Below, piece by piece: positions 8,876 to 40,113 of a stretch of 64,000 bases of DNA. The notes beneath the pieces were generated by a model. It searched no databases, was not told where the DNA came from, and saw only the letters and a program-made list of their open reading frames with translations. Every line of letters starts with the position of its first letter. The first letter of the stretch is position 1. Origin of the DNA: Paracoccaceae bacterium. Its GTDB lineage: Bacteria > Pseudomonadota > Alphaproteobacteria > Rhodobacterales > Rhodobacteraceae. The translations under genes and the position numbers were made by a program. Location of the stretch: the NCBI GenBank assembly GCA_019634215.1, contig JAHQVS010000101.1, positions 1-64,000 of the forward strand. The letters run 5' to 3'.

Positions 8876-8903
8876 GCCGAGGAAATGACTCCATTTCCTC
8901 GGC
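8876..8903 (+). terminator. Perfect 12-bp hairpin after merR
   Basis: GCCGAGGAAATG and its exact complement separated by the four bases ACTC, 20 bases after the MerR stop codon. It should form a very stable stem-loop in RNA, but no run of T follows, so termination is only the most likely role. An mRNA-stabilising or processing element is possible. The remaining gap to 9109 shows no gene. Confidence 0.45.
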
Positions 8904-9109
8904 GCTGCACCTCTGCAAATTAGAGCTCGGATCTTCTGCACATACACAGCAGTCCGATGCGCCCAATAGTCAAGCGCGGTCAGATAGCTTGAGTTTGATC
9001 GCCTAATTCGTCCGAGAGAACCTAGCGAAGGCGTCGCGCAATCAAGATCGCCCTCGCTCGATACTGAAGTTAGGGTGGCCGCCCAGAACGGATTGAGGAG
9101 TTCTATTGC

Positions 9110-23794: not shown

Positions 23795-23937
23795 CGACGG
23801 TTTCCTATGCGTGGTCTCGGTTCCTTTTGCGCATAGCATCCCCCTTCGGGTCTGACAGCCCAATCGTAGATTTTCATTGACTGTGTGCGCCTGCAGATCT
23901 CTGATTTAAGGTCAGGAATGTTGACTGGGTTTTCACT

Positions 23938-24420
23938 ATGACCTCAGAAGCCACGCCTACTTTACCGACGAAGGGGGAGAACCGCCCGGACGCCGTCGCC
24001 TATGGTCGTGACCTGAGGCAGGGCCTTGGCGTTAATCTGCTGGTGCGTGATGTGCCAGCTGAGGCGCGGTTCTTAGTCCAAGCGTTCGGGGTATCAGTTT
24101 CGTATTTCGACGATGATTTTGCCATTGTCGCCGGCTTTGGTGCGGAGTGGATGCTGCATTCTGACGGCTCTTATCAGTCCAATCCTCTGATCGGGGTGGT
24201 GCGTGGTTCTGATGAGGCGGGGGGCGTGCGCGGCGCGGGTATTGAGCTGCGGCTCTACGGCTGCGATCCGGACGCCGCCGTCGTTCGGGTTGAGGCGTTA
24301 ATTGAGGTTGACGCCGAAGCGGTGATCCTTGCCGCGGCGATGGATAAGCCTCACGGCCAGCGGGAGGCCGTGATCATTGATCCAGAGGGGTATGTTTGGG
24401 TCCCGGGCATCCCAATCTGA
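23938..24420 (+). CDS. VOC/glyoxalase-like protein
   Basis: Protein of 160 residues with a vicinal-oxygen-chelate fold: GVNLLVRDVPAEARFLVQAFG at the start, a central strand WMLHSDG, and GQREAVIIDPEGYVWVPG at the end. Typical metal ligands (His/Glu) are poorly conserved, so it may be a binding protein and not an enzyme. It is divergent from the CoA lyase gene with a 143-bp gap and converges with the SUMF1 gene. Substrate unknown. Confidence 0.75.
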   Translation: MTSEATPTLPTKGENRPDAVAYGRDLRQGLGVNLLVRDVPAEARFLVQAFGVSVSYFDDDFAIVAGFGAEWMLHSDGSYQSNPLIGVVRGSDEAGGVRGAGIELRLYGCDPDAAVVRVEALIEVDAEAVILAAAMDKPHGQREAVIIDPEGYVWVPGIPI

Positions 24421-24442
24421 CCACGCGCTTAGTATTTCCGCC

Positions 24443-25525
24443 TTAAGGTGAGCTGACCACACGGAAGCCGACATCACTATACCGCATTGGTCTGCCGGAT
24501 CGCGGCCGCGACGCGAATTGCCGCGCTGACGACCTCAAGCTGCGAGCATCGCTCTTCCAGGAGCCGCCGCGTTTCACTTGGCGCTTACACAGCGGCCCAC
24601 CGACGGCGTTGGCGGTGTTGGGAGCATCCTCATAGTTGCGCTCGTAACAATCTATCACCCACTCAGAAACGTTGCCGTGCATACCGTACAAGCCCCAACC
24701 GTTGGGTGAAAAGGTCCTCACAGCAACTGAGGCGCGCACAATACTGCGGTCGCGGTCGCCTTCCATCCGGGTGTTCCAGCGATACAGTGCGCGGTCGCGA
24801 GACAGCGTGTCACCCCAGGAGAATTCCGTGGTGGTTCCGGCGCGGGCGGCGTATTCCCACTCCGCCTCGGTGGGGAGCCGGTAGGGTGCGCCCTCCACCT
24901 TGCTGTTCAGCCAATCGACATAAAGCTGCGCGTCTTCCAGAGACACTTCAGCTGCCGGGTGGTCGCCTCGGCCCTTGCCGCTGTCACTCGGGACATAGCC
25001 ACCGCAGCCGCCGTCCAACGCGCAGACGTCCCATTGCGCATAGGTGATTTCGGTGTCGCTGATAGCGAAGCGAGGTGTTTCAACAGCACGAATCGGTCGC
25101 TCATTGCGGTACGCGTACTTGCTGGTGGAGCCCATCAGGAACCGGCCGGCCTCCAGAACCACCATGGTGGGGCATTGGTCGCAGTCTTGAAACGTGCTCA
25201 ACGCGCCGCCGGTGCTCAGCTCTATGGCGCCGCTTGACCGTGGCCTGGTGGCTCCAACCTCGCCACAGGTCTCAGCGAAATTGGTGAGGCAAGCACGATA
25301 GGCGGTGAACGCCGCGTCGCAATCAGGAGAGGGAGTCGCGTTGTTCGGGATGGCGATCGACCCAGCTCCGACCCGCTCCAGGCAAGTCTCCGGCAGGTTG
25401 TCAGCGCAAACAGAGCTGGGGTCGGCGCAAAGCGGATTCTCTTGCGCGGTGGCTGGAGCAGCGATAATCGCCAGGGCGCTCCAGACCGACAAGCAGAACA
25501 GGGCGATCGAGACGGGGACGTGCAT
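24443..25525 (-). CDS. Exported SUMF1 (FGE-sulfatase fold) protein
   Basis: Secreted or periplasmic protein of 360 residues. A Sec signal (about 1-27, cleavage near ATAQ) is followed by a cysteine-rich segment (to about 110) and then a SUMF1/formylglycine-generating-enzyme-like domain: GRFLMGSTSKYAYRNERP, EITYAQWDVCALDG, YRLPTEAEWEYAARAG, GLYGMHGNVSEWVIDCYE and a C-terminal YSDVGFRVV. The catalytic cysteine pair of true formylglycine-generating enzymes is not evident, so it is more likely a structural or binding domain. AGGAG precedes the ATG. Only 46 bp separate it from the upstream membrane protein, suggesting one transcript. Confidence 0.88.
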   Translation of the reverse strand: MHVPVSIALFCLSVWSALAIIAAPATAQENPLCADPSSVCADNLPETCLERVGAGSIAIPNNATPSPDCDAAFTAYRACLTNFAETCGEVGATRPRSSGAIELSTGGALSTFQDCDQCPTMVVLEAGRFLMGSTSKYAYRNERPIRAVETPRFAISDTEITYAQWDVCALDGGCGGYVPSDSGKGRGDHPAAEVSLEDAQLYVDWLNSKVEGAPYRLPTEAEWEYAARAGTTTEFSWGDTLSRDRALYRWNTRMEGDRDRSIVRASVAVRTFSPNGWGLYGMHGNVSEWVIDCYERNYEDAPNTANAVGGPLCKRQVKRGGSWKSDARSLRSSARQFASRPRSGRPMRYSDVGFRVVSSP

Positions 25526-25571
25526 GGCGCGGCTCCTGAGTCGGCTTTAACCGTCGCGCATGTAGGCATGT

Positions 25572-26261
25572 TCAGTCGAACAAGCTCAATCCGTATTTTT
25601 TGATCATTTTGAGCAGCTCAGCCTGGTTTTCATACTCATACAGTCGAATTTTCGGCAGTGCGGTAGAGTTTGACGCCGCCACCCCTTCGCGCATCAGAAA
25701 CGGCAACTTGCAGCCCTTGCGCACGAACCAGACCGAATCCACCCCATATCCCAACGCCATGCCAGCCTCGGTCAACACGCTCGAGACCACCTGATCCTCG
25801 TAAATCAGGATGAAGTGGCGCGAGGAGCGGAGCTTTTTCGCATTCTCGCGAAGGGAGCGGCCGGGAAGATCGAACTCGTCGATGTGTTCGATGCCGCGCC
25901 ACGCATAGAACACCTTGAGCTTGGGGTCCTTCTCGATCAGGGATTGGGCGACATGCTCCAGAGTGTCGCGAATGTCGGGTTGATTGCGCTCGGCCTGCGC
26001 CGCCATCGGCGCTGCGATAAACACATCGCAGCGGCTTCCGAACAGCGAATAGGGGGTCATAAACATCGAGGCGACACCGGTCAGCGCCAATAGACCGCAC
26101 AGAAACAGCGTTATGTAGCTGCCAACCAAGTTGTCGGATGGAAAACTGCTCACGGAAAAGATCAGCAGCGCCACGATCGCAATGATGCAAATGAATAGGA
26201 CTCTGAGCGATGGTGGAACAAAGCTCGACAAGGTTTCGATAAATTTCCGGAGGGTGTCCAT
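25572..26261 (-). CDS. Membrane-anchored deoxyribosyltransferase/TIR-like protein
   Basis: Protein of 229 residues I do not recognise as a named family. Two transmembrane helices (about 20-38 and 47-68) tether a cytoplasmic domain that opens with FIAAPM (81-86) and continues with VFYAW, a strand ILIYE, then SSVLTEAGMALG with Glu165 and VWFVR. This order matches the nucleoside 2-deoxyribosyltransferase/TIR-like Rossmann fold, where the glutamate is catalytic and nucleotides such as NAD or dNMP are substrates. It is clearly paralogous to the next gene upstream (26422-26964). GAGG lies before the ATG. Hydrolysis or sensing of a nucleotide at the membrane is an inference. Confidence 0.6.
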   Translation of the reverse strand: MDTLRKFIETLSSFVPPSLRVLFICIIAIVALLIFSVSSFPSDNLVGSYITLFLCGLLALTGVASMFMTPYSLFGSRCDVFIAAPMAAQAERNQPDIRDTLEHVAQSLIEKDPKLKVFYAWRGIEHIDEFDLPGRSLRENAKKLRSSRHFILIYEDQVVSSVLTEAGMALGYGVDSVWFVRKGCKLPFLMREGVAASNSTALPKIRLYEYENQAELLKMIKKYGLSLFD

Positions 26262-26421
26262 CGCCTCATTTCATTTCGCAGCTGAGCGACAGCCTTAGGC
26301 CGAGGGCCGGCTGGGAGCGCTTGTCGCGTTCATTTACCACGACTTATCGGCAACCTTTTCCCTAAGGACAAGCCATGGCGGGACTGCGATTGAATGTTGA
26401 TGGAGATAGAGAGTTGAGGGC

Positions 26422-26964
26422 TTAATCAGCTAATTCGCTTGGAATGTCGTATAATCTATCTTTACATTTTCTGGCCAGCTCTTCAGCGCTTTTATAAGTA
26501 GATATTGAAATTGTAGGCATGAAGTCTACTCTGCGCGCGCCATCTCTCGCGCCTATTAATAAGTAAGGTAAATCTTCTGGGTTCCTAACAAATATGAATG
26601 TACGCTTTTTCATGCCAAGCGCCATGCCCAGCTCGATTAAAGCACTTGTCAGCACCTTTTGCGGGTAGATGAATATAAATATATTGGCGTCAGCCAGTGT
26701 CATCACATCATCTTGAAAGGCGTCGCTTGGCGATGGCGTGAAGTCTGTTTTGTTCGGCTTCTCTTCCCCTGCAAAATAAACAGTATCGACGCGGCGCATG
26801 TCGCGAAGCTCTTGTTGAAGATAAGAAATGTCGTGAAAGTTTTGTTTGTATTCTTGCTTGGATGAGGCCGACATAGGAGCGGCTAGAAAAATACGGTAAC
26901 TATCAATCGGGCGAGTGGCGCGCGTCATCTGGGTCTCTAAGTCGAACCGATCGCCATCAGGCAT
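26422..26964 (-). CDS. Soluble deoxyribosyltransferase/TIR-like paralogue
   Basis: Cytoplasmic protein of 180 residues and homologous to the C-terminal two thirds of its membrane-anchored neighbour: FLAAPM (26-31), VYFAG, IFIFIYPQKV, TSALIELGMALG with Glu111, IFVRNPEDLPYLL and a final helix. The N-terminal 20 residues are polar. The reading frame is visibly AT-richer than its neighbours, with many AT-ending codons, which suggests recent acquisition. ATG at 26964 follows GAGGGAGAC; a GTG at 26994 would add ten residues. It lies 160 bp upstream of the membrane paralogue on the same strand. Function unknown; fold assignment is by motif order. Confidence 0.6.
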   Translation of the reverse strand: MPDGDRFDLETQMTRATRPIDSYRIFLAAPMSASSKQEYKQNFHDISYLQQELRDMRRVDTVYFAGEEKPNKTDFTPSPSDAFQDDVMTLADANIFIFIYPQKVLTSALIELGMALGMKKRTFIFVRNPEDLPYLLIGARDGARRVDFMPTISISTYKSAEELARKCKDRLYDIPSELAD

Positions 26965-27151
26965 GGCCCTGTCTCCCTCAGATTTACGACCCACACCCTA
27001 AATGTGGGGTTAATTCGTTTCAATGATACAAAATAACAGATATCTCTTTTTGCTGAGGCGATGTGGTACCCACGCCTGCAATCCTGGTCAAGTCTACCGC
27101 GATCAGCGATGCATGTCGCGTTGTTTGAGAAAGGTTTGGCGTAGCTCGGCG

Positions 27152-28933
27152 TCATTGTAACTTGGGCGGGTGCAAATCCAACAACCGCCAAACCTCCAGT
27201 CTCAGGGCTTCGGTGCGCGCGTCAATCTCCTCTGCTCCCCAGGTTTCAGCGGTGACGACGCTGCGCAGCAGGTGGTGTCGCCGCGCCTCTTCGACAAGAA
27301 CATCCCGTTTGGCGCGATAATCGAGGTTGGCGACGAGATTGTTGGCCGTACGGCTCATCATCGCCAGGTTGCCGAGCGCGTAGCACAGCCGATCATAACC
27401 AGCGCTGTTCTCGGCCGCCGCGGCACTTTCAGAGAATTGCTCGGGATTGCGCGGCAGCACATGCTCGACCGTGGCGGACCGCATCAATGAGGGGAGGTCT
27501 TCCCGCCACTCCGCCGTCTCCAATAAGCGCGTCAGCGCACTCCAGAGCCAATCGTCTTTAATTTGAGAGCGTAGAGCGCGATCAACCTTTTGGCGCTGCC
27601 GGTCGGTTGGAAACAGGGTGGCGCGGCCCTGTATGGTCGGGTCGCGCCCGGCCTTTGCTGTGCGCATCGCCTTGGCGTAGATCAGCCTCCGGTCTTGCGT
27701 GGAAAGGTCAGCCAGCGCCAGCGCCATACCCCGGCTGAGTAACCGGTTAAACCATTGACGATGCTGGGCCTGGTTGGATGCGTTTACTCCTTCGGCGGCG
27801 TCTTGCCGTTCCCGTTGTCTCCAGCGCCACAACGCAAGGGGACGCCATTCGTCCCAGGGTAGAAAGCTGAGCCGCCAGAGCGCGCGATGTAGCTCATCTT
27901 CGCTGGGATCAGCTTCGATCTCTTTCAATCTCCACCAGCATTCCTCCCAGTGGACCAGTTCCGCCATCCAGCCGCGAATCGCGTCACCGGGATGGCTTCG
28001 CCGTACATAGTCGCCAAGGTCGGTCTGCCACTGCCGACTTTGCGGTTGGCCACGCTCAATCAGGTCGACAGCGGCGAGGAATTTTTCGACGTCAGGACCA
28101 AGACGGGCGGTGATATCGCCCCAAAGATGCTCCACCTCGGCCTCGGCTTCGGCGGAGGCGGCGCATCCGACCAGCTGGCCCTTGAGGATTTCGGTGGGGC
28201 GCAGCGGTTTGCCGTAGAGGTTGGTGGAGACGAAAATCTGCCGCGCCAGCTCAGGTGCGAGCACTTGTGTCACAGTGACCACCGCGCGTTCGGCGACAAA
28301 GCTCCCGAAGCGGCGGCGGCGGTCCGGGTCCCAAGGCTCGTACCGCCGCAGGATCAGGTTTTTGACCCGTTGAATCTGTTTACCCAAATCAAGGTTGGCG
28401 GTGATGATGCGTTGGCGCAGCGCGCCGCCCTCGGTTTGGGCGTCGCGGATCAGCGTTTGGTCGCGATGGCGCAGGTCTAGCCGAAACCCACGGTCATTGG
28501 CGATCAGCGGCCGCAGCGCCGCCTTGCCCGTCTCGGTTGGATCCAAATCGCGCAGAACGGCGAAGAGGATGGTTAAGGTGGTGGTGCGCTGAAGGCCGTC
28601 ATAGATTTCGATTGAGTCCAACGGGTCTTCTGGGTCGTCACCTTCCGCCAGCACTACCGACCCCAGAAAGAAGGTCGCGACAGGTGGCGAATCATGGGTC
28701 TGCTCGATCTCCCACGCTTCGCGAGCTTCCACCTCTGCCCAATACGCCTCCACGGCGACGAACATCTCCTCCAGATCTTCCAGCAGCTGCTGCGCGTCCG
28801 GAGGCTCCCAACAATAGCTGCGCTGCACCGACGCCGGGCGAAATCGCCCTAGGGTCAGGAATTGCTCGATCGTGGCGATGCGCACCCCGATGACAGGCTC
28901 TTCGAGCATCGGGGCTGCGTCGAAATCTTCCAT
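27152..28933 (-). CDS. DUF262/HNH (GmrSD-like) nuclease
   Basis: Protein of 593 residues with the two halves of GmrSD-type enzymes in one chain. The N-terminal DUF262 domain has the RPxxxQRxYxW entry motif (near 32-42) and IYDGLQRTTTL (110-120), which replaces the usual DGQQR; it would bind a nucleotide. The C-terminal DUF1524 domain carries TVEHVLPRN and YALGNLAMM, then NLDYRAKRDVL, the His-Me/HNH nuclease core. Relatives restrict modified or phosphorothioated phage DNA (type IV restriction, SspE-like). No modification genes are in the window. A strong ribosome binding site is absent. It lies upstream of the two deoxyribosyltransferase-like genes on the same strand. Confidence 0.88.
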   Translation of the reverse strand: MEDFDAAPMLEEPVIGVRIATIEQFLTLGRFRPASVQRSYCWEPPDAQQLLEDLEEMFVAVEAYWAEVEAREAWEIEQTHDSPPVATFFLGSVVLAEGDDPEDPLDSIEIYDGLQRTTTLTILFAVLRDLDPTETGKAALRPLIANDRGFRLDLRHRDQTLIRDAQTEGGALRQRIITANLDLGKQIQRVKNLILRRYEPWDPDRRRRFGSFVAERAVVTVTQVLAPELARQIFVSTNLYGKPLRPTEILKGQLVGCAASAEAEAEVEHLWGDITARLGPDVEKFLAAVDLIERGQPQSRQWQTDLGDYVRRSHPGDAIRGWMAELVHWEECWWRLKEIEADPSEDELHRALWRLSFLPWDEWRPLALWRWRQRERQDAAEGVNASNQAQHRQWFNRLLSRGMALALADLSTQDRRLIYAKAMRTAKAGRDPTIQGRATLFPTDRQRQKVDRALRSQIKDDWLWSALTRLLETAEWREDLPSLMRSATVEHVLPRNPEQFSESAAAAENSAGYDRLCYALGNLAMMSRTANNLVANLDYRAKRDVLVEEARRHHLLRSVVTAETWGAEEIDARTEALRLEVWRLLDLHPPKLQ

Positions 28934-29359
28934 GTTCAGGACGCCCTATAAGATTTGATTTCGGCGCCTGACGACGAGAGGCGCTGCTTCAGCGGCATGA
29001 ATTGGCCGTCTGCAATACAGCAGGAGCCGTTTGGGAGCGCGTCCTGAAGTAGGGGCGCCTCAAGCCGAGCCACTTCCCCTTTGAGCCGCTAAACACGGGG
29101 CGGCTTCTTTAAGTATAAAAGCAATTACTGGCTATGCATAGTTTTTGGGCAAGTTGACGCGCCCTCGTATGAATAATAGCAGCTGATACAGTCCCCCAAA
29201 CACATAAACTGGGAGATTTCGATTTTTATAGACTTGTTGATAACAGCTATGTTGCCAAACTGTCGGTGAAGCGTCATCGTTTTGTCATGTTTCGGTCGTG
29301 TCCGGACCGAGTTGGATCACGTCATCGTTTTGTGCGTGGCTAAACTTGAGGAGAATGCG
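28934..29359. other. Intergenic gap with no gene seen
   Basis: About 425 AT-richer bases upstream of the minus-strand DUF262 gene and the plus-strand secreted protein. A short inverted repeat (AGCCGC/GCGGCT, 29084-29105) followed by TCTTT might end an unknown small transcript. No coding frame is convincing. Confidence 0.4.
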
Positions 29360-29728
29360 TTGACAGCTTTCCCGCCCCTCACAAATTTTCTCTCAGTTAA
29401 GCGCACCATGGGGCTCCATTTGATGGCCGCAGTGGTGCTCTCAACCGCTGTCGTTGGTGGTTTGCCAGGATCAGCTTGGGCCGAGGCCGGGCAGGACAAA
29501 TGCGGTCAGCGCGACCGGATGGTTGAACACCTGAAGGCCACCTATGGAGAGATCCGCCGCGGCGGTGGTTTGCAGTCCGCCACGGGCTTGATGGAGCTGT
29601 ATGTGTCTAGTGAAGGCAGCTGGACCCTGCTGCTCACGCGGCCTGACGGCACCAGTTGTCCTGTCGCCGTCGGTGAGGCGTGGCGCAATGACGGCACGCC
29701 GTTCCCTAAGGGCGAAAAACCTGCCTGA
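29360..29728 (+). CDS. Small secreted hypothetical protein
   Basis: Exported protein of 122 residues. TTG at 29360 has an excellent ribosome binding site (TTGAGGAGA); a later ATG at 29408 would give a more compact signal peptide. The signal ends near WAEAG (about residue 43), leaving some 80 residues with two cysteines (DKCGQRD and TSCPVAV) that could form a disulfide, and a central GSWTLLLTRPDG strand. The pattern recurs as a small conserved envelope protein in alphaproteobacteria, but I know no function. A pair of hairpins separates it from the convergent channel gene. Confidence 0.65.
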   Translation: MTAFPPLTNFLSVKRTMGLHLMAAVVLSTAVVGGLPGSAWAEAGQDKCGQRDRMVEHLKATYGEIRRGGGLQSATGLMELYVSSEGSWTLLLTRPDGTSCPVAVGEAWRNDGTPFPKGEKPA

Positions 29729-29730
29729 AG

Positions 29731-29765
29731 CCCAGGTTGTTTGAGTGTCGCTCAAACAGCCTGGG
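29731..29765. terminator. 15-bp stem-loop between convergent genes
   Basis: CCCAGGTTGTTTGAG pairs with CTCAAACAGCCTGGG (one wobble) around TGTCG, two bases after the small secreted gene. It should fold on either strand, and so may terminate both convergent transcripts, though no T run follows. Confidence 0.5.
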
Positions 29766-29779
29766 GCAACATCCCGAGA

Positions 29780-29806
29780 CTTCTCAAGCCAAACCGGCCT
29801 GAGAAG
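29780..29806. terminator. Second hairpin between convergent genes
   Basis: CTTCTCA and TGAGAAG with an inner GCC/GGC pair, 20 bases downstream of the ion-channel stop on its strand. Likely part of the terminator for the minus-strand channel gene. Confidence 0.35.
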
Positions 29807-29825
29807 CGTATCTATCTGAGATCAG

Positions 29826-30713
29826 CTACGGGCCATAATCCGGCCGTTGCGTCTCCCGCCCCTCTTGTATGGTGCGAAGTTCGGCGACCTCTGTGCGCAA
29901 TTGCTTGATTTCATTGAGCAGAAGGTCAAATCGCTCTTGATCGGCGGCCTCTTCCTTATCTCGCAGATCTTGCAACGCTTCCTCCCGGTCATCCTGCATG
30001 GCGTCGACGATAATTCCGATAAACAGGTTCAAAACCGCGAAAGCCGTCACCACCACGAACACCAGGAAGAACAGCCACGCCCAGGCGTACTCCGCCATAA
30101 AGCTGCGGGCGATGCTGCTCCAATCTTCCAGTGTCATGATCTGGAACAGGGTGAACAGCGAGCTTCCAAGCGTGCCGAAATACGTTTGCGCGTCCTCGGT
30201 TGTTCCTTCCCCAAAGGTTTCGGTCGCGAACACGGCGAACACATAGAACACCACGGCGAGCACCCCGATCACCGTCGCCATTCCGGGGATGGCGTTCAGC
30301 AGCCCGGCCACGACGCGGCGCATCTTTTGTGACACGGATAGCAGCCGCAGCACTCTGAGCACGCGTAAGGTTCGGATCACCGAGAGGTTGCCCGGCAGCG
30401 GCAGCAGCGCGACGGCGACCACGGTCACATCGAACCAGAACCATCCGGATTTGAAGGCGTCGAAACGGTCGGCGATCAGGCGGAGCCCGAGTTCGGCGAC
30501 GAATACGCAGAGAATGGCCGAGTCGATCCAGTTCAACAGATCGCCGAATTGCGCGTTGATCTGATCGCTGGTCTGCATGCCGATAATGATGGCGTTGACC
30601 AAAATTAGAATCGTCACGCTCCAGCGGAAAATTTCGGAATGCACCACCTGCTGCAGCGGCGTTTGTGGCGTCGCCTCCGCCCCATCGCTGGCTTGACCGT
30701 GATCCCTCGCCAT
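29826..30713 (-). CDS. NavBac-type voltage-gated ion channel
   Basis: Bacterial six-helix voltage-gated channel of 295 residues. S1-S4 (about 30-135) ends in a voltage sensor with arginines every third residue (R114, R117, R120, R123), followed by S5, the pore and S6. The selectivity filter reads TLEDWSS at 194-200; sodium-selective relatives usually have TLESW. A C-terminal helix (about 240-285) is the tetramerising coiled coil of this family. ATG at 30713 follows AGGAG; the frame continues upstream to 30902 without sense. The channel would carry Na+ or, given the extra acidic residue, possibly Ca2+. Confidence 0.9.
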   Translation of the reverse strand: MARDHGQASDGAEATPQTPLQQVVHSEIFRWSVTILILVNAIIIGMQTSDQINAQFGDLLNWIDSAILCVFVAELGLRLIADRFDAFKSGWFWFDVTVVAVALLPLPGNLSVIRTLRVLRVLRLLSVSQKMRRVVAGLLNAIPGMATVIGVLAVVFYVFAVFATETFGEGTTEDAQTYFGTLGSSLFTLFQIMTLEDWSSIARSFMAEYAWAWLFFLVFVVVTAFAVLNLFIGIIVDAMQDDREEALQDLRDKEEAADQERFDLLLNEIKQLRTEVAELRTIQEGRETQRPDYGP

Positions 30714-30913
30714 CTTCGTCTCCTTCGACAGACCCAATCCAGGCCCGCGCCGACGGTCCGACGGCCTGAACACGAGAAAATTCAGCTGGTGATGCGCGAC
30801 CACGCTTAGGGGCTCAACTGGAATCCGTCGCCGCGCGCCGGTTTTGCCCGTCACTGACGCAGTCCTCGCCCGGTTCCGGAGTGGGTTGACAGCGCTCTGC
30901 AATTAATGAAAAA

Positions 30914-30931
30914 AAATGAAAAAATTCATTT
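30914..30931. promoter_or_regulatory. Inverted repeat upstream of RND operon
   Basis: AAATGAA-AAAA-TTCATTT, an 18-bp dyad in an AT-rich patch 81 bp ahead of the exporter ATG. A TTGACA lies at 30886-30891 but no good -10 is visible. The TetR gene at the end of the operon is a candidate ligand. The rest of the roughly 300-bp gap (30714-31011) shows no gene. Confidence 0.35.
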
Positions 30932-31011
30932 ATCCATTTTGAGCGTGTTGGCCTGAAGCCATGCTTGCAAGCGTTCTCCGGTGGGAATGCGACCAAATGG
31001 AGGAGGTAAAG

Positions 31012-34000
31012 ATGACGGAGACTCAACCACCGGTTGGCCGAAGCGGCGGCGGCGGCGTAGAGCAAACCAGCGTCATGCGCGCCGCCGAGGCGATTGTGCG
31101 ATTGCGTTGGCTCTGGATAGCGATGACGCTGGTGATCGTCGTGGTGTCCGCTTTGGGGCTAGGGCGCCTCACCCTGGACCCGAGCGCGCGCGTGTTCTTC
31201 GACCCGAAAAACCCCGACCGGATCGCGCTCGACCGTTTCGAAACCATTTTCGCCAAAGACGACAACCTGATGTTCGTCATCGCCCCTAAGGGCGGCGACG
31301 TTTTCACGCCGGAGATGCTTGCGCTTCAGGGGCGGATCACCGAATGCCTCTGGCGCCTGCCCTTCGTGCGGCGAGTCAATTCCCTCACCAATTTCCAACA
31401 TACCTACGCCGAGGCCGACGATATGATCGTGCGCGACCTCGTGCCCGATCAGCCCTATGGCCGCAGTCTTGAGAATAACGCCTGCGATCTAGATCTCGAT
31501 GCGGTTGCCGTGACGCCGGAAATGGCGGCGGAGGCGCGGGAGATCGCGCTGTCTAGGGTCGAGTTGCTCAACAGCTTCGTTGATCCCGATGGCGAGGTGG
31601 CGCAGGTGCAGACCCTGTTCAAACTGCCTGGGCTGAACAAAGCGCAAGAAGTGCCTGTGGTCGCGGCCGAGGCGCTGGCGCTTGCCGAGCAAGTCGAGGC
31701 CGCTTTCCCGGATGTTTCGGTGAAGCTCTCTGGTGCGATCATGATCAACAATCAGTTCGCCGGCGCGGCGCAGGCGGACGGGCAGCTACTGACCCCGCTG
31801 ATGTTCCTGGCGATCCTCGTCCTGGTGGGGCTGACGCTGAGAAGTGTGATCGCAACATTCATGACGTTGATCGTGATCATCGTGTCGTCGTTGGCGGGCC
31901 TTGGGGCTTTGGCGTGGTCGGGCGTGCCAATCAACTCGGTGACGGCGCTGTCCTATCTTTACATCTCCACGCTGGCGGTCGCTTCCGCAGTGCATATTCT
32001 AGCCAGCGTCCGTCAAACCATGCCCGAGACTGAAGATCGGCGCGAATGGGCCCGGCGGGCGTTGTCAGAGCATATGGTCGCGATCATCGTCGCCTGTGTG
32101 ACGACGGCCATCGGGTTCTTGTCGCTGAACTTCTCGATCTCTCCGCCCTTCAGGCAGCTTGGCAATATCGTCGCGTTTGGGGTGATCGTCTCGATGGTGC
32201 TGACGCTCACGCTGCTGCCAGCGCTGGTCACCTTGCTGCCGATGCGCCGCCGCTTGGTGGCGCCGACGGCTGCGGTCTTTATGGCTCGCCTGGGCGATTG
32301 GGTGGTGGACAACCGCCGCATGCTGTTGCCGGGCATGGCGCTGATGGTGGTTCTTTGCGGGCTGGGAATTCAGCGTATCGTGTTGGAGGACGACTTCGTT
32401 CGCTACTTCGACGAGCGCTTTCAATTCCGTAAGGACGTTGACTTTATCGAGGCAGAGCTGACCGGGATCAATTTGCTTGAATGGCCGCTGGACAGTGGCG
32501 AGACCGACGGCATTAACGATCCCGAGTATCTCGCCAAGGTGTCGGCGTTCGTGGACTGGATGCGCGAGCAGCCCGAGGTGACCTCGGTTCGATCGGTCAC
32601 GGACACGATCAAGCGTCTCAACATGAACATGAACAGCGATGACCCCAGCTATTACCGGCTGCCCAAGGTCCGTGAGGAGGCGTCGCAGTATCTGTTCCTG
32701 TATGAGCTGTCGATGAACTACGGCATGGATCTGACCGATCAGATCGATATCGACCGGCGGATCATGCGGGTCTCCAATGCAATGACCGGCGTCACCACGG
32801 CTGACATGCGCGCTTTCACCGAAAGGGCGAAGGAGTGGTTGAGCGTAAATGCGCCGGACTTAACAACCGGCCCGGACGGCAAAAGAGACCCGACCGGCCT
32901 AGTCCACGTGTTCAACCTAATCTCGGAGCGGGACGTCAAGGCGATGCTCGGAGGCACGGTGTTGGCCTTGGTGCTGATCTCTGGCGTGCTGCTGTTTGTT
33001 CTGCGTGATGTGAAGGTGGGTGTGGTGTCCTTGGTGCCCAACCTGATCCCCGCCGTGATGGCGTTTGGGGTTTGGGGCTACACGGCTGGCGCGGTGACAT
33101 TAGCGATCGCGGTGGTGCTGGCCGCCACGCTGGGCATCGTGGTCGACGATACCGTGCATTTCCTCTCGAAATACGTCAAAGCCAGAAGAGAGGGGAAAAG
33201 CCCAGAGGATTCAGTGCGCTATGTGTTCCGAACCGTTGGGATGGCCTTGCTGATCACTACCTTGGCGTTGATCGCGGGCTTCTTGGTGTTGGCGCAATCC
33301 GGCTTCGCCGTGAATGGCGACTTGGCGCGTCTCACCGCGCTCACGATCGCCATCGCGTTGATCGCCGACTTCCTGCTGCTCCCGCCCCTGCTGATTGTGA
33401 TTGATCGAATGATGCATCGTAAAAGGAGCGTCGACATGACCCCGTCAAAGTCCGCCGCCACGACAGCGGCTCTGTGTCTCGCCCTTCCTCTCGCGGCCGT
33501 GCTGCTCGCCCCTGGGACGGCGCGGGCGGAAACGCCGGAGGAGAAAGGGCTCGCCATCGCCGTCGAGGCCGATAAGCGCGACCTCGGATGGAGCGACATC
33601 CGAGTCGATGGTGAGATGGTGTTGCGCGACGCTTCAGGACGCGAAAGCCGCCGCACATACGAGAACCTGTTCCTAGAGGTTCCGGCCTCCGAGCTCGGCG
33701 ACAAGTCCATCATCGTGTTCGACAGCCCGCGCGACATCAGGGGCACCGGTCTGCTGACCCACGCCGAGATTGAGCCGAAAGATGACAATCAGTGGTTGTA
33801 TTTACCGGCGATTAAGCGGGTGAAGCGGATCTCTTCCTCGAACCGTACGGGTAAATTCGTCAGTTCTGAGTTTTCGTATGAGGATCTCGGCGCACAGGAA
33901 GTTGATGATTATGAATATAAATGGCTGCGTGATGAGCCATGCCCTGGCGCGGAAGATCTGACCTGTTTCGTTTCGGAGAGCTATCCGAAAAATCAACGCT

Positions 34001-34272
34001 CCGGTTACTCAAAGCGCGTGTCTTGGACCGATCAGAACGAATACCGTCTGATGCAGGTGGAGTTTTACAATCGGCGTGGCGATTTAGAGAAAGTACTGAC
34101 CTTTAATGGGTATCAGCAGTATCTCGATAAATATTGGCGCGCGGACAAACTGACGATGGTGAATAAGCAGACCGGCAAAGAGACCGATCTTATCTCAACC
34201 AACTATCGGTTTAAGACGGGGCTTGAGAATGGGCAGTTTGTGTCGCAGGCGCTGCCGCGCATGGCGCGATGA
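31012..34272 (+). CDS. RND (MMPL-type) exporter fused to LolA-like protein
   Basis: One continuous frame of 1086 residues. Residues 1-808 are an RND exporter of the MMPL/HpnN type with 12 transmembrane helices and two periplasmic loops (VGLTLRSVIATFMTL in the first bundle, LGIVVDDTVHFLSK in the second). At residue 809 an ATG (33436) is preceded by AAAAGGAG and starts a protein with its own signal-like helix (LLAPGTARAE) and a 250-residue outer-membrane lipoprotein-sorting (LolA/LolB-fold) domain with DNQWLYLPAIKRVKRI. These are normally two genes; here there is no stop between them. The N-terminal start is fixed by AGGAGGT. It probably exports a lipid or hydrophobic compound across the envelope with the barrel gene downstream. 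Confidence 0.9.
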   Translation: MTETQPPVGRSGGGGVEQTSVMRAAEAIVRLRWLWIAMTLVIVVVSALGLGRLTLDPSARVFFDPKNPDRIALDRFETIFAKDDNLMFVIAPKGGDVFTPEMLALQGRITECLWRLPFVRRVNSLTNFQHTYAEADDMIVRDLVPDQPYGRSLENNACDLDLDAVAVTPEMAAEAREIALSRVELLNSFVDPDGEVAQVQTLFKLPGLNKAQEVPVVAAEALALAEQVEAAFPDVSVKLSGAIMINNQFAGAAQADGQLLTPLMFLAILVLVGLTLRSVIATFMTLIVIIVSSLAGLGALAWSGVPINSVTALSYLYISTLAVASAVHILASVRQTMPETEDRREWARRALSEHMVAIIVACVTTAIGFLSLNFSISPPFRQLGNIVAFGVIVSMVLTLTLLPALVTLLPMRRRLVAPTAAVFMARLGDWVVDNRRMLLPGMALMVVLCGLGIQRIVLEDDFVRYFDERFQFRKDVDFIEAELTGINLLEWPLDSGETDGINDPEYLAKVSAFVDWMREQPEVTSVRSVTDTIKRLNMNMNSDDPSYYRLPKVREEASQYLFLYELSMNYGMDLTDQIDIDRRIMRVSNAMTGVTTADMRAFTERAKEWLSVNAPDLTTGPDGKRDPTGLVHVFNLISERDVKAMLGGTVLALVLISGVLLFVLRDVKVGVVSLVPNLIPAVMAFGVWGYTAGAVTLAIAVVLAATLGIVVDDTVHFLSKYVKARREGKSPEDSVRYVFRTVGMALLITTLALIAGFLVLAQSGFAVNGDLARLTALTIAIALIADFLLLPPLLIVIDRMMHRKRSVDMTPSKSAATTAALCLALPLAAVLLAPGTARAETPEEKGLAIAVEADKRDLGWSDIRVDGEMVLRDASGRESRRTYENLFLEVPASELGDKSIIVFDSPRDIRGTGLLTHAEIEPKDDNQWLYLPAIKRVKRISSSNRTGKFVSSEFSYEDLGAQEVDDYEYKWLRDEPCPGAEDLTCFVSESYPKNQRSGYSKRVSWTDQNEYRLMQVEFYNRRGDLEKVLTFNGYQQYLDKYWRADKLTMVNKQTGKETDLISTNYRFKTGLENGQFVSQALPRMAR

Positions 34273-34282
34273 GGCGAAACCT

Positions 34283-35548
34283 ATGCGGGTGAAAGCATGT
34301 GGCGTTGCGGCGGGCGTTTGGCTCGCCGCCGTTGGCGGAGCAGCGGTTGCTCAGGAGGCCGAGAAAGAGGAAGTCTCGCCTCTCGATCCTGAGGCTGTAG
34401 AGTTCTACGGATCAGCGGAGTTTGAAGGCTCCGTGTTTGCCAAGGAACCGGCCTTCGCCGGCCAAAACCGCAACGATTTCTCCTTTGCGATCGAGCCAAC
34501 ACTGTTGGCTGAGTGGTTTAACGGTGATGTGGCGCTGACGGTCACCCCGTTCCTGCGGTGGGACGCCGCCGACGACCGGCGCAGCCACTTTGATCTGCGC
34601 GAGGCCAAGGTGGATTGGCGCATCGGCGATTGGGAGCTGACCGCCGGCAACGATTTCGTGTTCTGGGGGCGGACCGAGGCCCAGCAGCTGGTCGACATCA
34701 TCAACACCGTCGATGGCGTCGAGGGGTTGGATGAGGAGGAGAAGCTTGGCCAGCCGATGCTCAAGGTCACTCGTCTGACCGACATCGGCGCCTTCACCGG
34801 GTTTTACATGCCCTATTTCCGCGAGCGGACCTTCGCCGGCGAGGGCGGGCGGCTGCGCGCGTCAATCCCGGTGAATGACGGCGATGCGGTGTTTCTGAAT
34901 GGCGGCGGCGAGTGGGACCCCTCCTTCGCAGTGAGATGGGCGCATGTTATCGGTGATTTTGACGTTGGCGTTCATGGTTTCCACGGCGTTAGCCGAGATC
35001 CGGCCCTGGAGGCGTTTCAATTCGACGGGGTGGGGCGGCCGACGGCGCTACGGCCTGTCTATGACACCATTTCTCAGGTTGGCTTGGACGGGCAGTACAC
35101 TTCGGGTCCGGCGCTATGGAAACTGGAGTCGATTTACCGCTTCGATCAACTCGATGGGAACCTGGAGCGCCAAGATTACGCCGCCATCACGGGGGGAGTG
35201 GAGTACACTTTCTTCGATGTGAGCGGCAGCGGCGCCGACATAGGGTTGATCCTTGAGGGGGCCTACGATTCGCGCGGGGATGCCGCGCTAACCCCGTTCA
35301 ATGAGGATGTCATCGGCGGCGTACGTCTGGCGCTCAATGATGAGCAGGACACCAGCTTCCTGGCGACCAGCTCGGTCGACCTCGAAAGCGGGGCGAGCAT
35401 CTTGCGCCTGGAAGCGGAGCGGCGTCTCGTCGATGGTTGGAAGGTTGAGCTGGAAGGCAACGCGTTCCTGGGTGATTCCTCCGACGACGTCGAATCCAGC
35501 TTTCAGGACGACAGTTTTGTGCGCGTGAAGCTCATATATTTTTGGTGA
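34283..35548 (+). CDS. Outer-membrane beta-barrel protein
   Basis: Protein of 421 residues with a Sec signal (about 1-23, AAVAQ) and a mature part of alternating strands ending in VRVKLIYFW, the aromatic C-terminus used for barrel insertion. It belongs to the DUF1302-like porins that accompany RND/LolA-type exporters. ATG at 34283 is preceded by GAGG and starts 11 bp after the exporter, so it is the third function in one operon: inner-membrane pump, periplasmic LolA-like domain, outer-membrane barrel. Substrate unknown; a lipid or sterol-like compound is plausible. Confidence 0.8.
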   Translation: MRVKACGVAAGVWLAAVGGAAVAQEAEKEEVSPLDPEAVEFYGSAEFEGSVFAKEPAFAGQNRNDFSFAIEPTLLAEWFNGDVALTVTPFLRWDAADDRRSHFDLREAKVDWRIGDWELTAGNDFVFWGRTEAQQLVDIINTVDGVEGLDEEEKLGQPMLKVTRLTDIGAFTGFYMPYFRERTFAGEGGRLRASIPVNDGDAVFLNGGGEWDPSFAVRWAHVIGDFDVGVHGFHGVSRDPALEAFQFDGVGRPTALRPVYDTISQVGLDGQYTSGPALWKLESIYRFDQLDGNLERQDYAAITGGVEYTFFDVSGSGADIGLILEGAYDSRGDAALTPFNEDVIGGVRLALNDEQDTSFLATSSVDLESGASILRLEAERRLVDGWKVELEGNAFLGDSSDDVESSFQDDSFVRVKLIYFW

Positions 35549-35691
35549 CGCGTTTACCTTTATTCGGCGCCCCGGCATCATCGCGGGCGTCGGTTGTTGT
35601 GATTTTGGAAAATCGCAAAACGCGATAGTAAGGATGACCGCGCGCATGCGGCATCTTGGCGCAACCGGCGTCAGTGGTTTAGATTGGAAAT

Positions 35692-36324
35692 ATGGACGGC
35701 TCAGAACCAAATTTTATCAGCGCAGCAGCTCCGGAGCGGGACAAAACGCGAGAGGCAATCATCTCTCGCGCCCTGACGTTGTTTCAGCACTACGGCTACT
35801 CAAAGACCAACATTAGCGACATCGCCACCGCGTGTGAAATGTCGGCGGGCAATCTCTACCGCTACTTCAGGAATAAGCAGGCGATTGGGCACGCTGTCGT
35901 GAAGGGGTATTTTGAGCAGGAAGAGATCTGCACATCAGCTGTTCACGCGGATCGGAGCCTGGGGGCCGAGGCTCGGCTGCGCGCGCTTGTGACGGCCGGT
36001 GTGACGCACACCGTCGATCATCTGCGCAAATTCCCCAAAATCGTCGAGCTGGCGGAGATGATCTGCGAGACCGAGGACGGTCGCGAGTTAATCGCCGACC
36101 ATGTCCAGCACCGTAAAGCTGTGTTCTCCTCCATCATTCGCGATGGGATCGAGGCGGGAGAGTTTCGCGTGACCAACCCGGACGCCGCCGCGCGCGCGGT
36201 GCAGATGGGCACGAAATTCTTCCATGTGCCGTTCGCAATCGCGCGTCATGGGCTGGATCAGGTCGAGGAAGACCTTGAGCTTACGCTCGACCTGCTGTGT
36301 GCCGGTTTACGCGGCGGTTGTTAA
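35692..36324 (+). CDS. TetR-family regulator
   Basis: Regulator of 210 residues with the N-terminal TetR helix-turn-helix (about 18-66, ALTLFQHYGYSKTNISDIA then GNLYRYFRNK) and a variable ligand-binding C-terminus. It follows the RND-barrel operon after 143 bp and probably represses it; AAATGAA/TTCATTT at 30914 is a candidate site. Its stop overlaps that of the convergent ScfR-like gene by the four bases TTAA at 36321-36324. Ligand not predictable. Confidence 0.9.
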   Translation: MDGSEPNFISAAAPERDKTREAIISRALTLFQHYGYSKTNISDIATACEMSAGNLYRYFRNKQAIGHAVVKGYFEQEEICTSAVHADRSLGAEARLRALVTAGVTHTVDHLRKFPKIVELAEMICETEDGRELIADHVQHRKAVFSSIIRDGIEAGEFRVTNPDAAARAVQMGTKFFHVPFAIARHGLDQVEEDLELTLDLLCAGLRGGC

Positions 36325-37727
36325 CTCTCGTATCGTGTGTTGCCACGGCGGCTGGTGTCGATCGGCAGATCGATAAACAGCGGCTGATGTGCGCGCTGAG
36401 AGCAGGCTTGGCGCGGGCACAAGTGGCAGTTGATGCCAATCGGGCTGAACAGGCCGTCATCGTCTAGATTAAACGAGGCGGCATAGGCGAGGCGCTCCGC
36501 GTGCCGCATTTCACAGCCAAGCGCCAACGCTAGCCGGCGATCCTGGGTTTCGCGGCTGAATACCGGGCGGTCGGTGGTGCGGCTGATGGTGAAGAACCGC
36601 TCCCCGTCCGGCAGCTCGACGAATTGTGGGATGATCACCCCGGGGTTTCGGAATGAGGTGTGGATGTTCCACACCGGGCAAGAACCGCCATATTCCGCCA
36701 GTTGAAACGATGTCGAGTTGAAGCGCTTGGTGACATTGCCGGCCTTATCCACCCGCAAAAAGAAGAACGGCACGCCGGTCTCATCCTCACGTTGCAGAGT
36801 GGTGAGGCGGTGGCAAACCTGTTCGAATGAGACGCCGAACTCCGCCGCGATGCGGTCGACGTCGTACCGGGTGCGCTCGGCCGCACGCAGAAATGGGCTG
36901 TAAGGCATCAGGACCGCCGAGGCGAAATAATTGGCAAGCTCGACCTTGCATCGCGCCAATCCGGTCTCCGATGCGACGCCGCTGTCAGCTTTTATCGACT
37001 CCAGCAAGGCCTCTTGCTCAATCAGGCAGATCACATGGGCGAGCTGAAACACCCGGTTTTGGTGGTCGAGCGCCTCGGAGAGGCGTAGTTCGGAGTTCTC
37101 GCGGTCATAGACCCGCAGCGTGTCGCCCATGTCGTCCAGCGAGCAGGTGCGGACGATGACGCCGTTGGTGTCGCGCAGGCGGTTTTTCAGAATGAAATAG
37201 GCGTCGTCGACGTCGAATGGCGTTTCCACCCGCAAGCGCGCCGCCGCATTCTCTAGTTCAGGGAAATGGTTTTTATGGTCCCGGAAAAAGTCGTGAATCA
37301 CGGCTTCCGGCGAGGAGGCCAGCAGATTTTCGGGTGCGCTGTCCGTACCTTGCCGCATGATTTTGTCTAGGGCGGTGCGGTGGCTGCGGTAGAGCTGTAG
37401 AAAATGGTCGACAAGCTGGGGCGCGTGGTCGATCGCCGCCCGTAATTCTTGCAGGTCCGGCGGGGTTTCACCGAAAATCGGATCTTGCATGGCCGCCCGC
37501 AGATCGGTCAGACGGGTGGAGCTTTCGTCCTTAATCAGGTCGCGCCAATCCACCTTATAGGCGTCTGAGAGTGCCATCAGCACCTGCACTGATAAGCTGC
37601 GTTGATTATTTTCCAACAAGTTAACGTAGCCAGCGCTGACTCCGAGCGCCTTGGCCATCTGGGCTTGAGTCTGTTTATGCTGCCGCCTGAGTTGGCGCAG
37701 CCGGGGGCCGACAAAAGTTTTGCTCAT
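36321..37727 (-). CDS. ScfR/RamB/PccR-type transcription regulator
   Basis: Regulator of 468 residues. An XRE helix-turn-helix occupies residues about 8-62, an ImmA/IrrE-like region the middle (LAHVICLIEQEALL, CKVELANYFASAVLMP), and a cysteine-containing C-terminus (INCHLCPRQAC, about 440-450). This architecture is that of ScfR/RamB/PccR proteins, which sense short-chain acyl-CoA and control propionate, acetate or glyoxylate pathway genes. In the divergent gap to 37915, GTTGC and GCAAC (37792-37809) form an inverted pair similar to the TTGC-type boxes of the family. That region is AT-rich. Acyl-CoA enzymes elsewhere in the window fit the role. Confidence 0.85.
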   Translation of the reverse strand: MSKTFVGPRLRQLRRQHKQTQAQMAKALGVSAGYVNLLENNQRSLSVQVLMALSDAYKVDWRDLIKDESSTRLTDLRAAMQDPIFGETPPDLQELRAAIDHAPQLVDHFLQLYRSHRTALDKIMRQGTDSAPENLLASSPEAVIHDFFRDHKNHFPELENAAARLRVETPFDVDDAYFILKNRLRDTNGVIVRTCSLDDMGDTLRVYDRENSELRLSEALDHQNRVFQLAHVICLIEQEALLESIKADSGVASETGLARCKVELANYFASAVLMPYSPFLRAAERTRYDVDRIAAEFGVSFEQVCHRLTTLQREDETGVPFFFLRVDKAGNVTKRFNSTSFQLAEYGGSCPVWNIHTSFRNPGVIIPQFVELPDGERFFTISRTTDRPVFSRETQDRRLALALGCEMRHAERLAYAASFNLDDDGLFSPIGINCHLCPRQACSQRAHQPLFIDLPIDTSRRGNTRYES

Positions 37728-37914
37728 TTTCCGCTCACGTGGCGCCTAATTCTCATTCATATATTTTACAACATTACAAATTTAAATCCAAGTTGCATCA
37801 TCTCGCAACACAATGACCCGATTTGACGTGCGAAAAAATCCTGCCCTCGATAGTAATTTCACCTGGGAGGCGCAAAGCGTCAATGTGTTCGCGCCAATAT
37901 TGAGAGATGGTGAA

Positions 37915-38967
37915 ATGACGTATAAAATTCTCATTCTTGGTGCTTCGTACGGGTCCCTGCTTGGAACAAAGCTGGCGATGGCCGGCCATGATGTGACCTT
38001 GGTGTGCCGTGACGCAACAGCGTCGCTGATCAACTCGGAAGGCACCGAAGTTCGGCTTAAGTTTAAGGGCGAGAACGCCCATCGCGCCATCAAATCAGCC
38101 GATCTGCCGGGCTGTATCGATGCAGCTACGCCGGAGCAGGTCGACCCGGCGCGCTATGACATGGTGGCCCTGGCGATGCAGGAGCCGCAATACGCCGCGC
38201 ATCCGATCCGCATGCTGTTGAAGCGCATTGCCGAGATGCAGGTGCCGTGCCTGTCGATCATGAATATGCCGCCCCTGCCCTACCTGAAGCGAATTCCGGG
38301 GTTGAACGTTGATAGTCTGGAGGCGGCTTTCACCAACCCCCGGGTTTGGGATGGCTTCGAGCCGGGCCTCGTTTCGCTCTGTTCGCCCGACCCGCAGGCG
38401 TTCCGGCCGCCGGAAGAGGGCGCCAATGTGCTGCATGTCGGCTTGCCGACCAACTTCAAGGCGGCGCAATTCGCCAGCGATATCCACAACCAAATGCTGC
38501 GCGAGCTGGAGCAGGATATCGCCGATGTGCGTGTCGATGATCTTGACGTGCCGGTGAAGTTGCGGGTGCACTCCTCGTTGTTCGTGCCGATGGCGAAGTG
38601 GAGCATGTTGCTGACTGGCAATTACCGATGTGTGCTGCGCGGCGGCGTTCGGCCGATCCGCGAGGCGGTGCATGGCGACGTGGCGCAGTCTCGGGCGATC
38701 TACTCGCATGTCGACGCTATCGGCCAGCGCTTGGGCGCCGACCCGAAGGATCAGGTGCCGTTCGAGAAATACGCCGCCGCCGCCGAGAGTTTGCTCAAAC
38801 CTTCCTCCGCCGCTCGGGCCATCACCTCTGGAGCGCCTGTGATTGAGCGGGTTGATAAGCTGGTGCAACTGGTCGGCCGTCATCTGGGCATGCCGAATGC
38901 TGCGATCGATGAGGTGGTCGACACTGTCGACGCCGCCTTGGAACAGAACCAAGTACGCGCAGCTTAA
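37915..38967 (+). CDS. Ketopantoate reductase-like oxidoreductase
   Basis: NAD(P)-dependent dehydrogenase-like protein of 350 residues. The N-terminus (YKILILGASYGSLLGTKLA) is a Rossmann nucleotide site of the ApbA/PanE superfamily, and ALAMQEPQYA marks the second strand pair. The C-terminal half is mostly helical. Length exceeds PanE (about 300), and the catalytic lysine/glutamate of ketopantoate reductase cannot be assigned with confidence, so it may act on another 2-oxoacid. ATG at 37915 is preceded by GAGAGATGG. It is divergent from the ScfR-like gene and followed by a strong hairpin. Confidence 0.7.
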   Translation: MTYKILILGASYGSLLGTKLAMAGHDVTLVCRDATASLINSEGTEVRLKFKGENAHRAIKSADLPGCIDAATPEQVDPARYDMVALAMQEPQYAAHPIRMLLKRIAEMQVPCLSIMNMPPLPYLKRIPGLNVDSLEAAFTNPRVWDGFEPGLVSLCSPDPQAFRPPEEGANVLHVGLPTNFKAAQFASDIHNQMLRELEQDIADVRVDDLDVPVKLRVHSSLFVPMAKWSMLLTGNYRCVLRGGVRPIREAVHGDVAQSRAIYSHVDAIGQRLGADPKDQVPFEKYAAAAESLLKPSSAARAITSGAPVIERVDKLVQLVGRHLGMPNAAIDEVVDTVDAALEQNQVRAA

Positions 38968-39001
38968 GCGTTTTAATCAATTCTCCCTCCACGATGACAA
39001 G

Positions 39002-39034
39002 GCGAGGGGCGCGCTCAATGGGCGCGCCCCTCGC
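39002..39034 (+). terminator. 13-bp GC hairpin
   Basis: GCGAGGGGCGCGC pairs exactly with GCGCGCCCCTCGC around a 7-base loop, 34 bases past the ketopantoate-reductase-like stop. No T run follows, but the stem is very stable; most likely a terminator ahead of mdh. Confidence 0.5.
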
Positions 39035-39042
39035 GCCTGTAG

Positions 39043-40113
<1,071 letters not shown>

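What the first reader, a model, noticed from the sequence alone, without database searches (positions are those of the whole stretch)
24443..28933. Candidate four-gene defence or signalling module
Four same-strand genes: a DUF262/HNH nuclease of the GmrSD/SspE type, two paralogous deoxyribosyltransferase/TIR-like proteins (one soluble, one with two membrane helices) and an exported SUMF1-fold protein only 46 bp behind the membrane one. The soluble gene is visibly AT-rich, as if acquired. DUF262 nucleases are established antiphage proteins; deoxyribosyltransferase- and TIR-like enzymes degrade or make nucleotide signals in other defence systems. I know of no described system with this set. That the four act together is an inference; gaps of 187 and 160 bp leave room for separate promoters.
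Basis: partly seen in the sequence, partly recalled or inferred. Interest (0 to 1): 0.8.

Follow-up and report, generated by a model that had tools for sequence, protein, structure and literature searches.

The report
Inserted defence-gene cluster, not one module
Four neighbouring genes read by the first stage as one new defence system are real but look like separate parts that landed in the same inserted stretch of DNA; the interesting part is a pair of enzymes from an unnamed, scattered family that probably cuts nucleotides such as NAD+, one of them held in the cell membrane.

Summary
In detail: four intact same-strand genes. A is a DUF262/HNH nuclease, B a soluble and C a membrane-hairpin protein with paralogous deoxyribosyltransferase/TIR-like domains, and D an exported SUMF1-fold protein. 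The "four-gene module" reading is not supported. B/C relatives were found in only three outside genomes; none lies beside a DUF262 or SUMF1 gene. They are a lone hairpin copy, a fusion near a PtuB-type gene, and a DUF4062 fusion next to an integron integrase. D is one of about 15 SUMF1 paralogues in its own genome and lacks the FGE catalytic cysteine. A carries a complete GmrSD-type domain set and is closest to HEC-06, reported to work alone. New here: in seven relatives the genes flanking the block are direct neighbours, so about 5.4 kb, holding all four genes plus a glyoxalase-like gene, was inserted in this lineage. B/C fold like MilB/NDT/DNPH1 N-glycosidases and keep the catalytic glutamate, but lack MilB's hmCMP gate residue. 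Most likely: independent defence-type genes in one accessory block, with B and C cleaving NAD+ or a nucleotide. The B/C family has no Pfam, NCBIfam or PADLOC name. No activity or phenotype was tested.

The parts
27152..28933 (-). Gene A: DUF262 + DUF1524 (GmrSD_N/GmrSD_C) single-chain nuclease, 593 aa, with QR, DGLQR, FxxxN and His-Me/HNH motifs present
   Evidence: Pfam GmrSD_N 6.6e-18, GmrSD_C 2.5e-12; PADLOC best hit HEC-06 1.4e-24, also Orf5 and SspE; motifs named in PMC11411939 read in the translation
26422..26964 (-). Gene B: soluble NDT/DrHyd/TIR-like N-glycosidase-fold protein, 180 aa, AT-rich
   Evidence: AlphaFold model pLDDT 72, pTM 0.70; Foldseek MilB E 4e-6, DNPH1, NDT; GC3 0.46
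26632..26634 (-). Codon of Glu111 of B, aligned with catalytic Glu103 of MilB
   Evidence: phmmer alignment; the MilB E103A chain (4ohb) carries Ala exactly opposite it
25572..26261 (-). Gene C: N-terminal two-helix membrane hairpin plus the same domain, expected in the cytosol, 229 aa; catalytic-type Glu165
   Evidence: BLASTP to B 3e-14; hydropathy; same architecture in Flavipsychrobacter L029
26058..26207 (-). Membrane hairpin of C (helices about residues 19-37 and 48-68)
   Evidence: Kyte-Doolittle peaks 2.98 and 2.12; helices H26-48 and H51-85 in the model of the L029 homologue
24443..25525 (-). Gene D: exported SUMF1/FGE-fold protein without the FGE catalytic Cys; member of a genome-wide paralogous family; probably not functionally part of the set
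   Evidence: Pfam 3.6e-51; about 15 paralogous matches in own genome; no Cys after residue 313; alignment
23864..29281 (.). Inserted accessory block (glyoxalase-like gene, D, C, B, A) between HpcH/HpaI lyase and a small exported-type protein, which are direct neighbours in seven relatives
   Evidence: tblastn of flanking genes on relatives' loci L078-L081, L083-L085

Best explanation
This is an inserted accessory block carrying several independent genes, not a single four-part machine. A is a self-sufficient GmrSD-type (type IV-like) restriction nuclease: its DUF262 domain would sense foreign, probably modified, DNA and use NTP binding or hydrolysis to license cutting by its His-Me/HNH domain. 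B and C are two diverged members of an unnamed branch of the NDT/MilB/DNPH1 (DrHyd) superfamily that borders on TIR. By fold and catalytic glutamate they should break an N-glycosidic bond in NAD+ or another nucleotide, and the likely use is an infection-triggered depletion or signalling effector. C does this from the cytosolic face of the inner membrane, held by a helical hairpin; B is free. D is an exported, catalytically dead SUMF1-fold protein from a lineage-wide expansion; with C's domain expected in the cytosol it could meet C only at a loop of about ten residues. Shown: the genes, domains, paralogy, fold, catalytic Glu, insertion, and lack of conserved linkage in the cases found. Inferred: enzymatic activity, substrate, trigger, membrane orientation and defence role.
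For: Insertion: HpcH and the small protein are divergent neighbours about 270-430 bp apart in L078, L079, L080, L081, L083, L084, L085, but 5.4 kb apart here with A-D between. B/C fold and catalytic Glu. Relatives in other architectures and settings: DUF4062 fusion beside an integron integrase (DUF4062 is an antiphage NADase, PMC13174449); 502-aa fusion near a PtuB-type HNH gene; lone hairpin copy. The DrHyd/TIR clade is described as NADase effectors or signal makers in conflict systems (PMC9503650). A: full domain set and HEC-06 best hit; HEC-06 reported to act alone (PMC11411939); nearest relatives lack B/C. D: about 15 paralogues in the genome, none of those inspected near B/C or DUF262.
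Against: Only three outside B/C homologues were found, so linkage was tested on a small sample. All four genes share a strand and C-D are 46 bp apart, so co-transcription is possible. No phage, metabolite or expression data. Structure models rest on five-row alignments (pLDDT 72-74). B and C being adjacent paralogues is itself a hint of joint work.
Confidence: 0.55

Rival explanations
1. B and C form a two-gene system of their own: the soluble paralogue makes or senses a nucleotide signal and the membrane-tethered paralogue answers it, or they assemble into a hetero-oligomer; A and D are bystanders.
For: Adjacent, co-directional, 29% identical paralogues with the catalytic Glu kept in both; duplication with division of labour is known in TIR-based systems (established knowledge of Thoeris).
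Against: None of the three outside relatives has a partner copy; the composition of B and C differs strongly, so they arrived or aged separately.
Confidence: 0.25
2. B and C are housekeeping nucleotide-sanitising or salvage enzymes (MilB/DNPH1-like) with no role in defence.
For: The closest solved structures are CMP N-glycosidases and DNPH1.
Against: Patchy presence: none in 295 sampled other genomes of the same family, 2 of 398 in the phylum sample including its own; settings beside an integron integrase and near a PtuB-type gene; membrane hairpin; fusion to DUF4062; MilB substrate residues mostly changed.
Confidence: 0.13
3. The four genes are one new defence module in which exported D senses the phage outside, C passes the signal through the membrane, B acts in the cytosol and A cuts DNA.
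For: Same strand, C-D gap of 46 bp; SUMF1/C-lectin folds are proposed antigen sensors in bacterial conflict systems (PMC10907252).
Against: No co-occurrence of A, B/C and D outside this locus in the cases found; D belongs to a large paralogous family without B/C; gaps of 187 and 160 bp; composition of B unlike its neighbours.
Confidence: 0.05
4. A and B/C are two tiers against phages with hydroxymethylcytosine: B/C destroy hmCMP-type precursors as MilB does and A cuts the modified DNA as GmrSD does.
For: B is nearest in fold to the hmCMP N-glycosidase MilB and A to the GmrSD family, which includes enzymes that cut modified-cytosine DNA.
Against: The motif F-L-(G/A)-(G/A)-P-F-(R/K) that marks hmCMP enzymes (PMC4081090) reads FLAAPMS in B and FIAAPMA in C: no R/K gate and no stacking Phe.
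Confidence: 0.02

Closest known systems
GmrSD / HEC-06 / BrxU / SspE single-chain DUF262-DUF1524 nucleases
   Same: Gene A has both domains in order and all named motifs (DGLQR in place of DGQQR)
   Different: Only 23-30% identical to any relative found; target modification unknown
MilB/BcmB CMP N-glycosidases, DNPH1 and nucleoside 2-deoxyribosyltransferases (DrHyd superfamily)
   Same: Fold of B and of the C homologue; catalytic Glu; F-L-A-A-P loop; MilB Asp78 kept as Asp86 in B
   Different: MilB Phe22 and Arg23 not kept; membrane hairpin in C; below every Pfam cut-off
Swarozyc (DUF4062 TIR-like NADase)
   Same: One outside relative (P0005 in L005) fuses DUF4062 to the B/C-type domain
   Different: B and C have no DUF4062 domain
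NDT-like effector of type II retrons
   Same: NDT-fold effector used in a defence system (established knowledge)
   Different: No PADLOC model hits B or C; no reverse transcriptase near them
SUMF1/FGE C-lectin sensors of conflict systems and diversity-generating retroelements (PMC10907252)
   Same: D has the domain and a GGSW...GFRV C-terminus; paralogues in the same genome are fused to caspase-like and TIR-NTPase-like regions
   Different: The only reverse transcriptase found in the genome is a retron; no template repeat found; D is exported

Membership tests
GmrSD-type nuclease (gene A) | DUF262 N-terminal and DUF1524 C-terminal domains in one chain | tested here: met
   Pfam above curated cut-offs
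GmrSD-type nuclease (gene A) | QR, DGQQR and FxxxN motifs plus His/Asn His-Me finger | tested here: met
   QRSYCW, DGLQR (one substitution), FVSTN, EHVLPRN...LGNL...N...N read in the translation; motif list
GmrSD-type nuclease (gene A) | Cleavage of modified DNA | not testable with these tools
   Needs an enzyme assay
NDT/MilB/DrHyd superfamily (B, C) | Rossmannoid NDT fold | tested here: met
   Foldseek E 4e-6 (B) and 1.3e-5 (C homologue L029)
NDT/MilB/DrHyd superfamily (B, C) | Catalytic Glu | tested here: met
   B Glu111 opposite MilB Glu103; Glu invariant in five relatives
MilB hmCMP N-glycosidase | F-L-(G/A)-(G/A)-P-F-(R/K) motif | tested here: not met
   B FLAAPMS, C FIAAPMA
TIR NADase | TIR domain by sequence | tested here: not met
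   B and C: no TIR hit; only the L005 relative hits TIR_2 1.5e-7
Swarozyc | DUF4062 domain | tested here: not met
   B and C lack it
Type II retron NDT effector | Match to PADLOC effector model, adjacent reverse transcriptase and ncRNA | tested here: not met
   No PADLOC hit; the one RT found in the genome lies on another contig
Formylglycine-generating enzyme (gene D) | Catalytic Cys downstream of the GGS motif | tested here: not met
   GGSWKSDARSLRSSAR; last Cys is residue 313; the position of the catalytic Cys is from established knowledge
DGR target protein (gene D) | Template repeat and DGR reverse transcriptase | tested here: inconclusive
   Only RT in the 82%-complete genome is a retron-TIR; a DGR on missing sequence cannot be excluded

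The most novel reading that the evidence does not exclude
B and C represent an undescribed antiphage effector family: a TIR/deoxyribosyltransferase hybrid N-glycosidase that moves between phyla, exists in a membrane-hairpin form able to stand alone, and recurs fused to DUF4062 or to an unknown sensor domain; C would be a single-gene membrane-tethered nucleotide-depleting abortive-infection system.
Probability: 0.3. Interest if true: 0.55.

Novelty: new variant of a known kind. Interest (0 to 1): 0.37.

Why it matters
It removes a tempting but unsupported four-gene system and points to the testable part: a small unnamed family between TIR and deoxyribosyltransferase enzymes, including a membrane-anchored form shared by this genome and a Bacteroidota genome and not recognised by the current Pfam, NCBIfam or PADLOC models. 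It also shows a variable-content insertion site next to the HpcH lyase gene that may hold other defence genes in related genomes.

Tried and rejected
B/C homologues in plasmids, phages (50, 103) and viral contigs (19, 23, 24, 38, 83, 104): none. A five-row alignment was too diverse for a pattern scan. Plasmid DUF4062 proteins do not carry the B/C domain. A diversity-generating retroelement behind D's family was considered because its C-termini resemble variable regions; the genome's only detected reverse transcriptase turned out to be a retron-TIR. The hmCMP two-tier idea was rejected on the MilB motif. Promoter and terminator scans found no more than shuffled sequence. No tRNA or integrase lies beside the block. 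Repeats at the gene edges: nothing convincing.
Full report
OBSERVATION. The four minus-strand genes are real and at the stated coordinates. Gene A (27152-28933) carries GmrSD_N and GmrSD_C above Pfam's cut-offs; gene D (24443-25525) carries FGE-sulfatase; gene B (26422-26964) reaches the deoxyribosyltransferase families only below the cut-off and gene C (25572-26261) reaches none. B and C are homologous to each other (29% over 148 aa, E 3e-14). C has two strongly hydrophobic helices, B has none, D has a signal-peptide-like start. B is by far the most AT-rich gene-sized stretch of the window, while C has the normal third-position composition, so the pair is not a fresh duplication.

WHAT B AND C ARE. 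AlphaFold models of B (pLDDT 72, pTM 0.70) and of the C-like homologue from Flavipsychrobacter (pLDDT 74) match the CMP N-glycosidases MilB and BcmB, human DNPH1 and nucleoside deoxyribosyltransferases. C itself was not modelled. In the sequence alignment Glu111 of B lies opposite the catalytic Glu103 of MilB; the E103A structure 4ohb shows alanine at that very column. This glutamate is invariant in the five family members in hand. The MilB motif for hydroxymethyl-CMP, F-L-(G/A)-(G/A)-P-F-(R/K) (PMC4081090), is only half kept: FLAAPMS in B and FIAAPMA in C, so hmCMP is an unlikely substrate. The related domain in P0005 hits both TIR_2 and Nuc_deoxyrib_tr in Pfam, placing the family at the TIR/DrHyd border; that clade is described as NADase effectors or makers of ADP-ribose signals in conflict systems (PMC9503650).

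WHERE RELATIVES OCCUR. Apart from the window's own genome, nothing was found in the samples of the same family (296 genomes searched), order (293) or class (385), in plasmids or phages, or in viral contigs. The phylum sample gave one: a protein with an N-terminal DUF4062 domain (9e-32) and a C-terminal B/C-type domain, encoded on the opposite strand beside an integron integrase (TIGR02249 1e-119), so probably a gene cassette; attC sites were not searched. DUF4062 has just been described as a TIR-like antiphage NADase, Swarozyc (preprint PMC13174449). The scan of 84,980 genomes, limited to two short peptide patterns and so not exhaustive, gave two more: a 502-aa protein with an unknown N-terminal region, on a contig that also carries a PtuB-type HNH gene and a helicase-type protein, and a 249-aa protein with the same two-helix hairpin as C and no obvious partner. 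None has a DUF262 or SUMF1 neighbour.

GENE A. It carries the motifs of its family (QR, DGLQR, FVSTN, His-Me finger; motif list in PMC11411939). Its best PADLOC match is HEC-06, reported to work as a single protein (same paper). Its two nearest relatives in the related genome G016 (27-30% identity) have no B/C-type gene nearby (profile search). Plasmid relatives are at most 26% identical.

GENE D. The same genome holds about 15 matches to D, many exported, some fused to caspase-like or TIR/NTPase-like regions or to a peptidoglycan-binding-like segment (these fusions were read from the sequences, not scored against a library). The neighbourhoods inspected contain no B/C or A homologue. Neither D nor any aligned paralogue has the catalytic cysteine of formylglycine-generating enzyme after the GGSW motif (cysteine position from established knowledge). 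D is therefore best read as a non-catalytic binding or structural protein of a lineage-specific expansion. Because it is exported and the catalytic part of C is expected in the cytosol (inferred from the charge pattern), the two could meet only at a short loop.

AN INSERTION. In seven of the nine relatives whose HpcH/HpaI lyase locus was fetched, that gene and the small protein encoded at 29282-29728 are divergent neighbours about 270-430 bp apart (L078-L081, L083-L085). In the window they keep the same orientation but stand 5.4 kb apart, with a glyoxalase-like gene and D, C, B and A between them. The block is thus an accessory insertion in this lineage. In four of these relatives the small protein is followed closely by the counterpart of the gene at 39082-40113, which is 9.4 kb away here, so the whole stretch looks variable in content. 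No integrase, tRNA or clear end repeat marks the block.

MECHANISM. Most likely A protects alone by recognising and cutting foreign, perhaps modified, DNA. B and C, when triggered, hydrolyse an N-glycosidic bond in NAD+ or another nucleotide, B in the cytosol and C at the inner face of the membrane. Shown: genes, folds, catalytic residue, insertion and lack of conserved linkage in the few cases found. Inferred: activity, substrate, trigger, orientation and defence role. A division of labour between B and C stays open at about one in four.

NOVELTY. DUF262 nucleases, deoxyribosyltransferase/TIR-type effectors and SUMF1 expansions are each known. The hairpin-anchored deoxyribosyltransferase/TIR-like architecture, recurring in two phyla, was not found under any name in Pfam, NCBIfam or PADLOC or in the open literature searched. 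It is rated a new variant of a known kind.

Noticed in passing
L072 (G000:C322) 7200-9213: Retron of the RT-TIR type (NCBIfam Retron_TIR 1.9e-162, PADLOC type XII) with a 153-bp upstream element present twice (86% identical, each with an internal palindrome), possibly two ncRNA copies.
   Followed up: partly
G000 contigs C182, C51, C114, C29, C308, C199 (L050, L051, L057-L060): A small exported Cys-rich N-terminal domain shared with D is joined to SUMF1, peptidoglycan-binding-like or unknown C-terminal parts: an unnamed exported domain family expanded in this genome.
   Followed up: partly
L062, L063, L066 (G016): SUMF1 paralogues with similar frames but scattered differences between GGSW and GFRV, reminiscent of diversity-generating-retroelement variable regions, although the only reverse transcriptase found in that genome is also of retron type.
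   Followed up: partly
window 29282-40113: A second 9.4-kb stretch (ion channel, MMPL transporter and others) separates two genes that are close neighbours in four relatives: the same place looks like a hot spot of variable content.
   Followed up: partly
L005 514-1401: A 295-aa protein of no known family (P0006) follows the DUF4062 fusion gene near the integron integrase; it may be its partner.
   Followed up: no
L055 6265-9321: 1018-aa protein with a TIR-like start, an NTPase-like middle and a SUMF1 end in the window's genome, resembling proposed conflict-system sensors.
   Followed up: no
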